From positions 1 to 64,000 of the forward strand of contig JAKCPI010003277.1 of the NCBI GenBank assembly GCA_023213315.1: 64,000 bases of DNA, written 5' to 3'. This stretch comes from Euborellia annulipes (taxonomy: Eukaryota > Arthropoda > Insecta > Dermaptera > Anisolabididae). Positions 4,238-60,556 of this stretch are shown here, one piece after another (positions within the stretch are counted from its first letter, which is position 1; each line of letters starts with the position of its first letter). The notes beneath the pieces are model-generated. The model was not told where the DNA came from. It ran no database searches and was given only the letters and a program-made list of their open reading frames with translations. The position numbers were made by a program, and so were the translations under genes.

Positions 4238-4476
4238 TTCTGTCCTCGCCTTATTCCCGCGATTCGGGGTCGGCGGACCTCAATTTTTCCCTCCAACCCT
4301 ATCTTGCGTTTTTGCGACCGGAAGAAATAGGACAGGCCGGCCCGTCACACGGTCTGACGCCTGTTGAAAAGAGTAAAGAAGAGACAGACATACAAAGAAC
4401 TGAAGGACTGCCCGTCCCAGCTCGGGCAGCTCGTGGTTGCCATCCACGTAGCCACAAGATGTGGGCCCCTGAGCAA
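4238..4476 (+). repeat. GC-rich retroposed repeat with 15-bp target duplication
   Basis: Flanked by an exact 15-bp direct repeat GTGTATAGGCACATC (4223-4237 and 4477-4491). The interior is much GC-richer than the surroundings and contains CCGGAAGAAATAGGACAGG and a CGGGGTCGGCGG motif. A second copy lies at about 60360-60556, matching from the CGACCGG motif to GTGGGCCCCTGA. Both strands give ~80-codon open frames, but none shows a recognisable domain. The long duplication suggests target-primed retroposition; the parent sequence is not identified. Confidence 0.65.
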
Positions 4477-15239: not shown

Positions 15240-16040
15240 ACTTCAAAAAAAAGTTGTGAAAGTATTAAAAAAATTATTTAAGACCCAGACCATTCTGATA
15301 TTTATTTAAAAGAAATTCTTAAGTAAATATAATAAGTTAAATAAGAATGTCTTTCTTTGCTTAATTTATTCATATGCAAATCATCTCATTCACTTTCTTC
15401 AAATTCAGAAGCTTCGATTGAAATCAATTGGACTCATTCATGCAAAATTCTATTCATCCTTCTGTCCTTGATTGCTCATCCGTTGCAGAGTTGGCCTTAG
15501 AATTCATTTGGAAAAGATACAAGCTTTTCTAACGTAATATTAAAAAATGTTGGTGTTATTTTAAAAAAATAGTGGATGAATTATTCTTAAAAAAATTTAA
15601 ATTCTTGCCAATTTGACAATAATTGGTTACCAATTGAAAAAAATTTTCATCGTTTGGAAGAGGAAGTGAGTCCCTGGCTGTTATAGGTCAGCATAACAAA
15701 AGGGCGACACCTATACCTCTATGCTACAGGCCAGGGAGCATATTAATTATGGTTTTAAATCTTATTTATTATTATTTATTTATTTATTTATTTATTTTTG
15801 TTATTTTGCCTGTTGGCTGTAAAAAGGTTGAAAAGCGCTGCTTTAACCTATCATCAATAGAATAATTACTTTTTCTTATTCTATATAGAATTCTAAAACA
15901 AACCTTTTTTAAACTCTCTAATTAAGTAATCCATCTCTTCTTGACAGGATCTTACTTCTTTAAGTAAATAAGGGCATCACGTTTTTGTAAGCCTAATGAG
16001 CATCCAGATGATAAACATTTTTTAAAATTATATTCACTTT
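15240..16040. other. AT-rich stretch with (TATT)n
   Basis: Contains a (TATT)n run at 15761-15798 and an imperfect inverted repeat around TCCCTGGC (about 15673-15740). No gene recognised. Confidence 0.45.
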
Positions 16041-16145
16041 TATGTTCAAATTTTTTTTATTCCGAATTTATTGCCGAATCAAATATCGCCTTCTTAAGGC
16101 GTTCTGTTTCTTATCTTTAAATTATTCTCTTTTTTTTTTTCAAAG

Positions 16146-16374
16146 AGATGAGAATTTTTTTTTTGAATTTCAAGTTCTGGATTTAGATCTGATGATGAAA
16201 AACAGAGAACAGAATGGAGATTTATTAAATGGAAAGGAAATTTATTACTCCACTTTGGGGAAAGTTCTAAACAAGGCAGGCGGACATTTTAGAAATAGAA
16301 AGATTACATACATTAGTTATCTTAAGGATTATTCACAAAATGTAAAGAATCTCATTATGACATTTTTTCTTTAA
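16146..16374 (+). CDS. candidate terminal exon (hypothetical)
   Basis: A long poly-T tract ending CAAAG (acceptor AG at 16144-16145) precedes 75 open codons to TAA at 16372. The product is hydrophilic in its middle (REQNGDLLNGKEIYYSTLG...). An AATAAA motif lies ~65 bases after the stop, a usual distance for a poly-A signal. The exon starts with one base completing a codon, in phase with the donor at 8297. Against it: a frame of this length is expected by chance several times in a window this AT-rich, and no domain is recognised. The extended frame back to 16042 runs through the poly-T and is not favoured. Confidence 0.25.
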
Positions 16375-16439: not shown

Positions 16440-18190
16440 ATAAAGGCCAAGATATAATAGTTAAAGGCCAGAAAATAAATAATAGAGTAGTTAAGTCACA
16501 ATAAATTTTTTTTGAAATTTTGGGGCATTTCGATGATGGAAGGCTAATTTTTGGCATTTCAAAAAGGGAGAAGGGACAAGGTTCCTTGAGAACATTCTCT
16601 AAATTCTTCGCTATAGTAATTTGGACTTGATATTATTTTTTTCATGATTTTATAAGAAAATAGAGTTAACTTTAAAATTGCATATTTTTCTTTTCAGATT
16701 TTATTAAAAGCCTCTCCCCTCCGAGGTCGAGAGATTAAAGATAGTGAAAATGTCAATATTTTTAAAAAATATTTCTTCTCGGCTGCTGAGGCCATTTAGA
16801 GGTTTATTATAAGGCCATTTAGAGGTTTATTATATATAATACACTATACAGGTATTAAATGATATCATAGGGAAAATCGACCAATGGGTGTGCTATATTT
16901 CATATTTTTTTATATTTTGCCACAATATACATCTATTGCAATAGTATTGAGATTAAAGCCCGGTAGTTAGGCAGCCCAAATGCACACGTTCACTAAACTT
17001 TAGTTAAAAAGGATCATTCGGCCTATTTTCTGCTTTGGAAAAGGTATTTCTCACATGGACAAGCTGCCATATGGGCTGTCTAACTAGACTCAATATTATT
17101 GCAATGGTATGGTAGGCCTACATCCTCTGTCAAGATTTTAAAACGGGGTTAAATTTATTTATTTATTATTTTTTTACTTTTTTTTTCAATTTTGTTTAAT
17201 TTTGAGAGGCCATTATGTAGAGGTAGATAGATGAATTTTGCACTTTTTATAGTATGGAAATATTTGAATAATTATTAAATAAAATTATTTATAAATATAT
17301 TTCACGGAAAACCTACACCACTTTCCCTCCAAACTATGAATAATTATTATTTTAATAATTATTTATAGTGTTCCTCTCTTTGAACGTCTTCTTTATATTC
17401 TTGTATAAAATTAGTATTTCTTTATTGATATTTTTTCTTAAATAAATACATTTTAAAAGAGAGATGTTTAATCTTTTACCTGGTTATATGGGCTTAATAG
17501 TATTAATATTTATAAAAAAAAATTCATAGGAGTATTTTTAAAAATTATCATCTAAATATTGAAGTTGACTATAATTTTATTATTAGGCTAATATTTCGTG
17601 AATATAAAAGCAATAAATTCAGAATTCTAAGTTTCAACTCCCATCTTTAATTCAATGGTTCTAGTTCATCTTGAGAAATATCTCACTCGATATCTATGAG
17701 TTGGTTAATAAAATCTAACTACAAAGAGAAAGGAGGAATAGAAAGAGATTTTTTAAATTAAGAAAACGAGTAATGTAAATTGCATTATACAAGTCAAACT
17801 GAATAAGTAAAAGTTATTTCCTTCAAATTTTATATTTGTTAAAACTAGAACAAAAGTGACTTTCATAGATCTTTTTTCTTTGGCTTATCCAATTGAATAA
17901 ATTTTTGTATTATAGGTTGGGTGGGTCCTGAGCCTACGACCCCGGAAATGATAGACAATACATTACAATTATCTTTTACTAACAGGGGGGCGAGGGTCTT
18001 TATGTCGATAGTCGTGAAGCTGGGAACATCATATAAGTTTTAAATTCGTAAAAATAATGAATACAGAATTTTATTGGATTGAGAACCAGGTTCTAACTTA
18101 GGAGGAAGGAGGGGGGTGCAAAGTATATTTTGTGCACCAGAGTACAATACAAAATTGTAGAGCATTAAATTTGCTAAAATATGGTAGATA
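16440..18190. other. AT-rich stretch, nothing recognised
   Basis: Contains a short direct repeat (AAGGCCATTTAGAGGTTTATTAT-like, twice at 16785-16835) but no gene or known repeat. Confidence 0.4.
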
Positions 18191-18194
18191 AAAC

Positions 18195-18317
18195 GAATTT
18201 ATTGACCCAATATTAAACGAGTTACGGCCGATCAAAGTTAGACAAAGTTTCTCAAAATGAAAAAGAAATAGAAACTTTGATCGGCCGTATTTTGGTTAAT
18301 ATTGGGTCTGGAAATTC
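18195..18317. repeat. foldback element (palindrome)
   Basis: Arms 18195-18240 and 18272-18317 are inverted copies (GAATTT...GACCCAATATTAA / TTAATATTGGGTC...GAAATTC) around a ~30-base loop. They include ACGGCCGATCAAAGTT and its complement. No clear target duplication, so the class is unknown. Confidence 0.75.
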
Positions 18318-18319
18318 AT

Positions 18320-19360
18320 TTTAACAACATTTTTAACAAGCACTACAACTTTGCATTGTACTATGGTTCACAAAATACGTCTAGTTTACTAGATATAAGT
18401 GAAAAATTGAAAAGTCCTATAATTATAAGTTTTTGCACGACTCAGAGGCCTTTTGGTTATTATTTTGGAAGTTTGAGGTTCTTCACCTCTCTACTCCCTT
18501 AAAAAATCTCGGCCGGTCTTCAAAGCGATTCTATAAGAAATTATGCCATTAAATTTTAACAATTGTAATCGGTTGTTAGCCATGTCGGTACATTATTATA
18601 AGATTCTCATGTTATGCTAATTAAGATTCTTCTTAAAGAAAACAACTTATTTTTTATTTAAAAAAAAAAAAAACATTCATGCGAAGAAAATTGATTCTAA
18701 AGAGAAAATTAAGGCTGCAGTTAACATCTTAGCATGATTAGAGTTCCCTTCCAGAATCGTACACACTTGTTTTATTTATTTAGATTTAAAATTGAATTTT
18801 TAATTTTATTTAAAATCAAAATAAAATTGGTAATAATATTATCTTTAGGAAAATAAGATAAATCATCCCCGTTTCACAGTGATTGGTTTTCTACTCTTTA
18901 AATAAACATCTGTTTATGTCTCAAAATAAACATTTCTTTTTATAGTCTGTATTATGCACTAACAATCTCGTTATAGCATTCACCTTTGTCTCGGCGTAAA
19001 GCTGAAAGATGACTTAGTTCCTACAAAAGACTGATAAATTAAAAAAAAATAAAAAAATAAATATAACTTATATTGTTTTTGTTTTTTTTTTACTTGCCAA
19101 TTTGACTAACCAATTAAAATAATTTTTTTCCAAATTAATTTTTTTTCTTAAAGGGAAAATATGAATTAAATTCTCAATAAGGAAAATTTACGTTTAACTT
19201 ATAAAATATTTTTCAAAGACGATTAGCAATTCCCAAAAACAGAGTAGTAAACAAGAGAAATATTCTGTACCAGGTATATCATCCACAAAAAGAGAAAGAG
19301 TTTCCATTAAGACGACGATGTCTCTTTGCGAACTAATTAATTATTATGATGTAACAAACT
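18320..19360. other. AT-rich stretch, nothing recognised
   Basis: No supported feature; 18302-18502 is an unsupported open frame overlapping the foldback. Confidence 0.4.
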
Positions 19361-24050: not shown

Positions 24051-24127
24051 CCGATAGTAGCCTGGAGGTAAAGGCTTATCAATCAATATATAGAACTGTG
24101 ATTTATTATTTTTTTTGTTTTTGTTTT

Positions 24128-24221
24128 AGGTAAGTGTACATTCTTACGGATTTGCATGCTGAACTGAATTTAATTCGACTACTAATCCACATGAATTATT
24201 ATAATTTAACTCCAACTAAGT
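24128..24221 (+). promoter_or_regulatory. recursive-splice-like site with flanking pseudo-exon (copy 1)
   Basis: A long T-rich tract runs straight into TTTTAG|GTAAGTG: acceptor AG at 24128-24129 abutting donor GTAAGT at 24130. A second donor GTAAGT lies at 24220, bounding 90 nt with stops in all frames. This is the layout of a recursive ('ratchet') splice site plus RS-exon. A homologous copy with all three sites conserved is at 45875-45962. Function is inferred; it would imply a long plus-strand intron. Confidence 0.5.
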
Positions 24222-24229
24222 AAGTATAA

Positions 24230-45641: not shown

Positions 45642-45812
45642 ATTTTTTTTTTTTCAAGTCTTTTTGGCAACTTAGGATATAAAGACTTTAACTATACTCA
45701 TATACAATATAGGTGGGAGTCCATGTATATTTATTTATATATCATTTGATATCCATATGATTTAAATATTCATCTGACTGCCTGGGATCTGAACCCGGGT
45801 CTCTTCCTTGTC
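45642..45812 (-). repeat. SINE-alpha copy, truncated
   Basis: Poly-T, AAGTCTTTTTGGCAACTTAGG, the TCATTTGATATCCATATGATTT hairpin, CTGCCTGGGATCTGAACCCGGG. Ends before box A. Confidence 0.7.
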
Positions 45813-45874
45813 TTTAGTATATTTTAAGATTGGAGGCCTATTATTCTGTAAATAATTAATTTTTCTTTTGTTTT

Positions 45875-45962
45875 AGGTAAGTGTTTATTAGTTCGGAATT
45901 GAATGTGGAGTTCAATTGAATTCTTCAACTAATCCTCATGAATTATTATGATTTAAACAAGT
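45875..45962 (+). promoter_or_regulatory. recursive-splice-like site with pseudo-exon (copy 2)
   Basis: CTTTTGTTTTAG|GTAAGTG: acceptor AG 45875-45876 directly followed by donor GTAAGT at 45877. A second donor GTAAGT at 45961 bounds 84 nt with stops in every frame. It shares CTAATCC(T/A)CATGAATTATTAT and the upstream TGGAGG region with 24130-24219. Preservation of acceptor, abutting donor and distal donor in both copies is the main evidence. Confidence 0.5.
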
Positions 45963-45969
45963 AAGTTTT

Positions 45970-46297: not shown

Positions 46298-46308
46298 TTC
46301 AATTAAAA

Positions 46309-46565
46309 GCCCGCCGGGCTTGGAGTAGTTGGTAGCGTGCCTACCTTCTATACCGAACGTCGCGGGTTCGGACCCCAGGCAGTCCGATAATTTTATTTAA
46401 GGCATTTAGATACCAAATGGCTTGAATAGAAATGCCTGGACCCCCAATAGATTTATTAAAACATCGAGTATCGTTGAAAGTCTTAAAAATTGGCCTAAGT
46501 TGCCGAAAAGACTGTGTGAATGAGAAAAAAAGTGTGAATGTTTACAAAAAAAAAAAAAAAAAAAA
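46309..46565 (+). repeat. SINE-alpha, full-length with target duplication
   Basis: Exact 11-bp duplication TTCAATTAAAA (46298-46308, 46566-46576). Head GGGCTTGGAGTAGTTGGTAG (box A), CGCGGGTTCGGACCCC (box B), TGCCTGGACCCCC, GCCGAAAAGACTGTGTGAA, poly-A. Confidence 0.93.
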
Positions 46566-60359: not shown

Positions 60360-60556
60360 CTTGCAGTGCGGAATCAGCGGATTGGGATTTTTACGACCGG
60401 AAGAAATAGAACAGGCTGGTCGGTCGCACGGACTGACGCCTATTGAAAATATAGAAAGAAGGGACAGATATATAAAGAACAAAAGGACTGTCAGTCCCAG
60501 CTCGGGTAGCTCGTGGTCGCCATCCACGTACCCACAAGATGTGGGCCCCTGAACAT
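60360..60556 (+). repeat. GC-rich retroposed repeat (copy 2)
   Basis: TTACGACCGGAAGAAATAG, GCACGGACTGACGCC, GTCAGTCCCAGCTCGGG, CATCCACGTACCCACAAGATG, GTGGGCCCCTGA: the same order as 4310-4472 with ~15% differences. No flanking duplication seen. Confidence 0.65.

What the first reader, a model, noticed from the sequence alone, without database searches (positions are those of the whole stretch)
45875..45962. Second, homologous recursive-splice-like site 21.7 kb away
Seen: CTTTTGTTTTAG|GTAAGTG again, with a donor 84 nt on. The sequence is related to copy 1 across the pseudo-exon (CTAATCC.CATGAATTATTAT) and upstream, while its surroundings are unrelated. All three splice sites survive in both copies although the rest has diverged. 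Two paral ratchet points, or duplicated poison/alternative exons, would be unusual.
Basis: partly seen in the sequence, partly recalled or inferred. Interest (0 to 1): 0.75.

Follow-up and report, generated by a model that had tools for sequence, protein, structure and literature searches.

The report
Twin recursive-splicing exon candidates
Two related stretches of about 125 bases, 22 thousand bases apart on the same strand, each look like the stepping-stone exons that let a cell cut out a very long intron in pieces, but whether they are used, and whether the genome holds more copies, could not be checked here.

Summary
TTTTGTTTTAG|GTAAGTGT followed by a second GTAAGT occurs twice on the + strand: exon 24130-24219 (90 nt) and exon 45877-45960 (84 nt). 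The copies match at 96 of 126 columns (E 9e-20). Homology starts 31-34 nt before the junction and ends around the second donor; flanks score like shuffles. No third copy was seen in the window. They are its only YAG|GTAAGT sites behind a strong pyrimidine tract (0.005-0.04 expected per strand). Every frame has a stop and codon-position bias is absent. Best reading: two paralogous recursive-splicing exons, as in Drosophila (PMC8605326), unusual in that the exon body is conserved (27/30 in its 3' part). Main rival: a low-copy retroposon in antisense whose A-rich tail gives the pyrimidine tract. Caveat: the second donors are not aligned with each other by BLAST or MAFFT; my register needs a 6-nt gap set by hand. 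The genome search did not complete (13 calls), no host gene was found and there are no RNA data, so splicing is inferred, not shown.

The parts
45846..45876 (+). Copy 2: upstream region, polypyrimidine tract and acceptor TTTTCTTTTGTTTTAG|
   Evidence: Sequence; last 16 nt before the junction 14/16 identical to copy 1
45877..45882 (+). Copy 2: ratchet-point donor GTAAGT directly abutting the acceptor
   Evidence: TAG|GTAAGT matches 8 of 9 positions of CAGGTAAGT
45877..45960 (+). Copy 2: 84-nt cryptic exon, a stop in each frame; its 3' part ACTAATCCTCATGAATTATTATGATTTAA nearly unchanged between copies
   Evidence: 27/30 identity in exon columns 51-80, 27/42 in columns 9-50, 8/8 in columns 1-8
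45961..45966 (+). Copy 2: downstream (RS-exon) donor CAA|GTAAGT
   Evidence: register with copy 1 needs a 6-nt gap set by hand
24096..24129 (+). Copy 1: upstream region, polypyrimidine tract and acceptor
24130..24135 (+). Copy 1: ratchet-point donor GTAAGT
24130..24219 (+). Copy 1: 90-nt cryptic exon, a stop in each frame (in frame 1 only the TAA of the initial GTAAGT)
24220..24225 (+). Copy 1: downstream donor TAA|GTAAGT
45801..45817 (+). Extra strong acceptor (CTCTTCCTTGTCTTTAG) 59 nt upstream of the copy 2 ratchet point, just after the end of a repeat; the same filter finds none at copy 1
   Evidence: repeat 45643-45797

Best explanation
Two paralogous recursive-splicing exons (RS-exons) in one long intron or transcription unit on the + strand. 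The polypyrimidine tract/AG together with the donor 84-90 nt downstream let the splicing machinery recognise a short cryptic exon. The upstream exon is joined to it, which rebuilds a donor at its 5' edge (..AG|GTAAGT). That donor outcompetes the downstream one, so the cryptic exon and the next intron stretch are removed together. If kept, the exon would act as a poison exon, because every frame has a stop. The pair arose by duplication of one exon unit, after which the flanks decayed while the unit was kept. Shown: anatomy, homology, sharp limits, stops, rarity in the window. Inferred: transcription, splicing, step order, selection, a common gene.
For: YAG|GTAAGT sites behind a pyrimidine tract (at least 11 or 13 of 15) occur only at these two places on both strands of the window. 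Both have a GTAAGT 84/90 nt on; 0 of 150 simulated strands gave such a triple at either threshold. The 4 strong-acceptor plus GTRAGT pseudo-exons of the window (4 on +, 0 on -) all lie at the two copies. Homology covers about the exon-definition unit and stops around donor 2. A 19-column run across acceptor and ratchet donor is unchanged. The ratchet donor matches CAGGTAAGT at 8/9 in both copies, donor 2 at 7/9 and 8/9. Published RS-exons have this layout and are cryptic and skipped. Several recursive sites in one intron are known: 98 fly introns.
Against: No RNA evidence, no host gene, no genome copy number. Other two-copy repeats exist in the window (4 further pairs, one an overlapping inverted pair). 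BLAST and MAFFT do not pair the two second donors. Cryptic RS-exon bodies are described as poorly conserved and mostly out of frame; here the body is partly well conserved and both lengths are multiples of 3. The lengths (84/90 nt) exceed the ~50 nt given there. In copy 2 the second donor matches the consensus as well as the ratchet donor (8/9 each), so donor competition is not clear-cut. Both acceptors are TAG where the published ratchet consensus has CAG. Frame 0 shows conservative replacements (P 0.005 in one of six frames), which could hint at a coding past.
Confidence: 0.48

Rival explanations
1. Two copies of a low-copy retroposon lying in antisense. Its A-rich 3' tail, read backwards, is the polypyrimidine tract, and its body happens to hold an acceptor and donor-like motifs. 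The copies may be inert or splice-competent, as antisense Alu elements can be in primates (recalled).
For: On the - strand each copy is a body of roughly 95 nt ending in an A-rich stretch (for copy 2; copy 1 by reading). The window is repeat-rich: 23% lies in self-hits, and 4 further isolated two-copy pairs exist. Copy 2 lies 48 nt from another repeat (45643-45797). No comparison was possible that would rule this out.
Against: Only two copies, in one orientation, in 64 kb. No convincing target-site duplication: best shared flanking words of 6 and 7 nt, not at the ends. Both ends of homology lie at splice signals, and the triple of splice signals was not met in 150 simulated strands.
Confidence: 0.27
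2. Duplicated poison or alternative exons (ordinary cassette exons, 5'-untranslated or regulatory), whose initial GTAAGT is incidental and not used as a donor. Inclusion adds a stop or an untranslated exon and tunes expression.
For: A stop in each frame of both copies; the 3' exon body conserved at 27/30 suggests that exonic sequence matters; donor 2 is strong in both (7/9 and 8/9).
Against: The exon begins with an unchanged near-perfect donor in both copies, an arrangement rare by chance, which this reading leaves unexplained.
Confidence: 0.15
3. Decayed copies of a once-coding (perhaps terminal) exon read in frame 0, VSV..STNPHELL*, each now broken by a stop.
For: Frame 0 replacements are more conservative than in simulated pairs (P 0.005, about 0.03 after six frames), and both copies end in a stop at the same codon, TAA against TGA.
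Against: No excess of third-position changes (6/5/7); each copy has its own internal stop; copy 2's reading matched no solved structure; a strong donor follows.
Confidence: 0.06

Closest known systems
Intronic ratchet points with cryptic RS-exons of Drosophila (Joseph et al. 2021, PMC8605326; abstract, introduction and passages seen)
   Same: Juxtaposed acceptor and donor with AG|GTAAGT, a short downstream exon ending in a second donor, stops that would make inclusion harmful.
   Different: Here two sites are homologous to each other including much of the exon body; lengths 84/90 nt and multiples of 3, whereas fly cryptic RS-exons are about 50 nt, poorly conserved in the body and mostly out of frame. 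Use in splicing is not shown here.
Ubx m1 and m2 recursive microexons (Hatton et al. 1998, as told in PMC8605326)
   Same: Two RS-exons in one very long intron, each starting with a regenerated donor.
   Different: m1 and m2 are 51-nt frame-preserving exons included in some mRNAs; these two have a stop in each frame. The passages seen do not say that m1 and m2 are homologous to each other.
Poison exons (named in PMC8605326, which cites Lareau et al. 2007; otherwise recalled)
   Same: A stop in each frame; conserved non-coding exon body.
   Different: Poison exons need no donor at their 5' edge.
Exonised antisense retroposons such as Alu (recalled)
   Same: An A-rich tail in antisense gives a polypyrimidine tract.
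   Different: Alu exists in very many copies; here two copies in the window and the genome not searched. No Rfam match at the element; no SINE library was searched.

Membership tests
Recursive-splicing (RS) exon / ratchet point | Juxtaposed acceptor and donor, (y)nncag|gtaagt (consensus as given in PMC2773006) | tested here: met
   13 of 15 pyrimidines, then TAG|GTAAGT in both copies; T instead of C before AG
Recursive-splicing (RS) exon / ratchet point | Second donor a short distance downstream, permitting exon definition | tested here: met
   GTAAGT at +84 and +90
Recursive-splicing (RS) exon / ratchet point | Ratchet donor stronger than RS-exon donor | tested here: inconclusive
   8/9 against 7/9 (copy 1) and 8/9 against 8/9 (copy 2); the bases before the rebuilt junction come from an unknown upstream exon
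Recursive-splicing (RS) exon / ratchet point | Lies inside a long intron of a transcribed gene on the same strand | tested here: inconclusive
   No coding exon recognised among the 300 longest of 569 filtered ORFs; compatible with a long intron or with intergenic DNA
Recursive-splicing (RS) exon / ratchet point | Junction or lariat reads, sawtooth nascent RNA profile | not testable with these tools
   No RNA data
Recursive-splicing (RS) exon / ratchet point | Conservation of AG|GT across species | not testable with these tools
   No collection of animal genomes; only likeness between the two copies seen
Dispersed repeat family | Many genomic copies | not tested
   The genome search 'own' unanswered in 13 tries; two copies within the window
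Dispersed repeat family | Target-site duplications at the ends | tested here: inconclusive
   Best shared flanking words 6 and 7 nt, not adjacent to the ends; copies this diverged may have lost them
Coding alternative exon | Open frame and third-position bias | tested here: not met
   A stop in each frame of each copy; mismatches 6/5/7 by codon position

The most novel reading that the evidence does not exclude
Ratchet points can multiply as a unit: an RS-exon (acceptor, regenerated donor, regulatory exon body, downstream donor) was copied within one giant intron and both copies have been kept by selection, including a 29-nt exonic element (ACTAATCC.CATGAATTATTATRATTTAA) that may control skipping. 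That would make recursive exons a duplicable intron-splitting module, and their exon bodies functional rather than inert.
Probability: 0.3. Interest if true: 0.7.

Novelty: new variant of a known kind. Interest (0 to 1): 0.5.

Why it matters
How long introns acquire ratchet points is, as far as I know, open. A homologous pair in which the exon-definition unit survives while its surroundings have decayed would point to an origin by duplication and to an exonic element under constraint that can be tested in a minigene. If the genome instead shows many copies, it would be a case of a mobile element seeding recursive splice sites, which is also testable.

Tried and rejected
Chance likeness: rejected (E 9e-20; simulations). 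Longer segmental duplication: no collinear homology in 6.5-kb stretches holding the copies (about 3 kb on each side; top 24 hits listed). The one other strong hit there, 22361-22473/44744-44852, belongs to a multi-copy repeat. Structured RNA: no Rfam match at gathering score in the window; one hit each at E 0.37 and 0.71 near the two sites, not on the elements; four folded stretches have z-scores from 1.70 to -1.08. Coding exon: stops and no codon bias. Host gene: Pfam scan of the 150 longest ORFs per strand, 300 of the 569 that passed a composition filter (621 of 38 aa or more before it; shortest scanned 47-48 aa, so short exons would be missed). It gave 15 single family hits with E up to 0.05, best 0.0089, about what 300 scans give by chance. 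Seven ORFs and one solved-structure search gave nothing significant. Organism: a protein search with a repeat ORF found nothing; the organism is not known. Copies elsewhere: none for a 21-base pattern in viral and prokaryotic contigs, a 19-base pattern in viral contigs, or copy 2 against phages; none of these holds animal genomes, so this says little.

Literature: no paper on paralogous or duplicated recursive exons was noticed in the listings (20 of 36 listed; 15 of 2,672; 4 of 4; 1 of 1; 5 of 5; 7 of 7), nor in the passages seen of PMC6110457, PMC10156609, PMC6224609 and PMC13149111. PMC2773006 was seen in passages. Of PMC8605326 I saw the abstract, the introduction with one legend, and passages. 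The library holds open-licence papers only, so this is no proof of absence.

Full report
What is there. At 45871-45882 the + strand reads TTTTAGGTAAGT, with a second GTAAGT at 45961. The only other exact copy of that 12-mer in the window is at 24124-24135, with a second GTAAGT at 24220. The two stretches align at 96 of 126 columns (88.7 bits, E 9e-20 against the window). The pseudo-exons are 84 and 90 nt. A profile of the pair, searched with nhmmer's filters off, finds these two; the next hits have E 0.59 and 0.81 and are the copies' own reverse strands.

Limits of homology. Anchored on the acceptor junction, identity in 10-nt bins rises from about 30 nt before it, stays at 6-10 of 10 through exon position 80, and then falls to background. 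Flanks of 60 and 200 nt score no better than shuffled sequence (left 75 and 247, right 396 and 91 of 500 shuffles reach the observed score; element 0 of 500). So the shared unit is roughly polypyrimidine tract, acceptor, exon and donor, the unit that exon definition needs. One caveat: around the second donor the copies differ by 6 nt. BLAST pairs the copy 2 GTAAGT with CTAAGT of copy 1, 4 nt before its GTAAGT, MAFFT pairs neither, and my register with a 6-nt gap was set by hand. The second donor is present in both, but its one-to-one descent is an inference.

Within the unit. The acceptor/ratchet-donor block is an unbroken run of 19 identical columns. The first 8 exon bases are 8/8, columns 9-50 27/42 and columns 51-80 27/30. 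One search also printed 0.005 for a mismatch-free first 20 of 92 columns; this is not a valid test, since the run was chosen after it was seen and the first of those columns does differ. Each frame holds a stop in both copies; in frame 1 of copy 1 the only stop is the TAA inside the initial GTAAGT. Mismatches fall 6/5/7 over codon positions. One of six frames, frame 0, shows more conservative replacements than simulated pairs (P 0.005 before correction), which goes somewhat against a purely non-coding reading. No fold stands out.

Is it more than chance? YAG|GTAAGT behind at least 13 of 15 pyrimidines: 2 on +, 0 on -, against means of 0.005 (200 first-order simulations) and 0.02 (150 fourth-order simulations); at 11 of 15 the count is the same and the mean 0.04. 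The full triple was seen in 0 of 150 simulated strands. These thresholds were set after the site was seen. A simpler definition, strong acceptor plus GTRAGT 30-250 nt on, gives 4 pseudo-exons on + and 0 on -, all 4 at the two copies; two of the four use an extra acceptor at 45817, just after a repeat. From the counts of 26 acceptors and 25 donors about 2 such pseudo-exons would be expected on + anyway (my arithmetic), so it is their coincidence with the homologous pair, not their number, that counts. Five isolated two-copy pairs are in the window, this one included; one of the other four is an overlapping inverted pair.

Setting. The window is about 30% G+C, with 23% of it in self-hits, no tRNA by ARAGORN and no Rfam match. 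Pfam hits among 300 of 569 filtered ORFs were at chance level. This fits a long intron or an intergenic stretch of a large animal genome; which one is unknown.

How it would work. In published recursive splicing (PMC8605326) the cryptic exon is first recognised, the upstream exon is joined to it, and the donor regenerated at its 5' edge is then preferred, so that the exon is discarded. Here the ratchet donors match CAGGTAAGT at 8 of 9 positions in both copies; the second donors match at 7 (copy 1) and 8 (copy 2). Copy 2 would therefore depend on the bases supplied by the upstream exon or on exonic elements for its preference. The same paper reports that exonic sequence can decide RS-exon fate, which would give the conserved 3' block a role. 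I recall, without a test, that ACUAAU resembles STAR-protein (HOW/Quaking) sites.

Rivals. The strongest is an antisense retroposon: the reverse complement has an A-rich end, the region is repeat-rich, and copy 2 lies 48 nt from another repeat. Against it are the lack of clear target-site duplications, the fact that both ends lie at splice signals, and the low copy number in the window. Poison or cassette exons without ratcheting are possible but leave the shared initial GTAAGT unexplained. I put about one half on paralogous RS-exons, one quarter on the retroposon and the rest on the others.

Novelty. Single ratchet points and several per intron are known: 98 fly introns with more than one (PMC6110457), and Ubx m1/m2. 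A homologous pair with a conserved exon body was not met in the six paper searches named in Tried and rejected. If real it would be a variant of a known kind.

Noticed in passing
window 45801-45817: Second strong acceptor (CTCTTCCTTGTCTTTAG) 59 nt upstream of the copy 2 ratchet point, just after a repeat; it would make a 59-nt exon ending at the ratchet donor.
   Followed up: partly
window 4309-4475 and 60388-60555: Isolated two-copy direct repeat, 86% identical over 168 columns.
   Followed up: no
window 46306-46450: Short dispersed repeat with up to 9 overlapping self-hits and a tRNA-promoter-like stretch (GCGGGTTCGGACCCC); a related fragment lies at 45743-45797. The label tRNA-derived SINE is recalled, not from a call.
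   Followed up: no
window 18126-18377: Stretch of about 250 nt that matches its own reverse complement at 73%, perhaps a hairpin-forming element.
   Followed up: no
window 16015-16371 +: 119-aa open frame without self-hits in its kilobase; only a weak match to the MotA C-terminal domain (E 0.022), probably chance.
   Followed up: partly
window 57438 -: A weaker acceptor-donor junction, CTCCATAG|GTAAGATAGG, on the minus strand.
   Followed up: no
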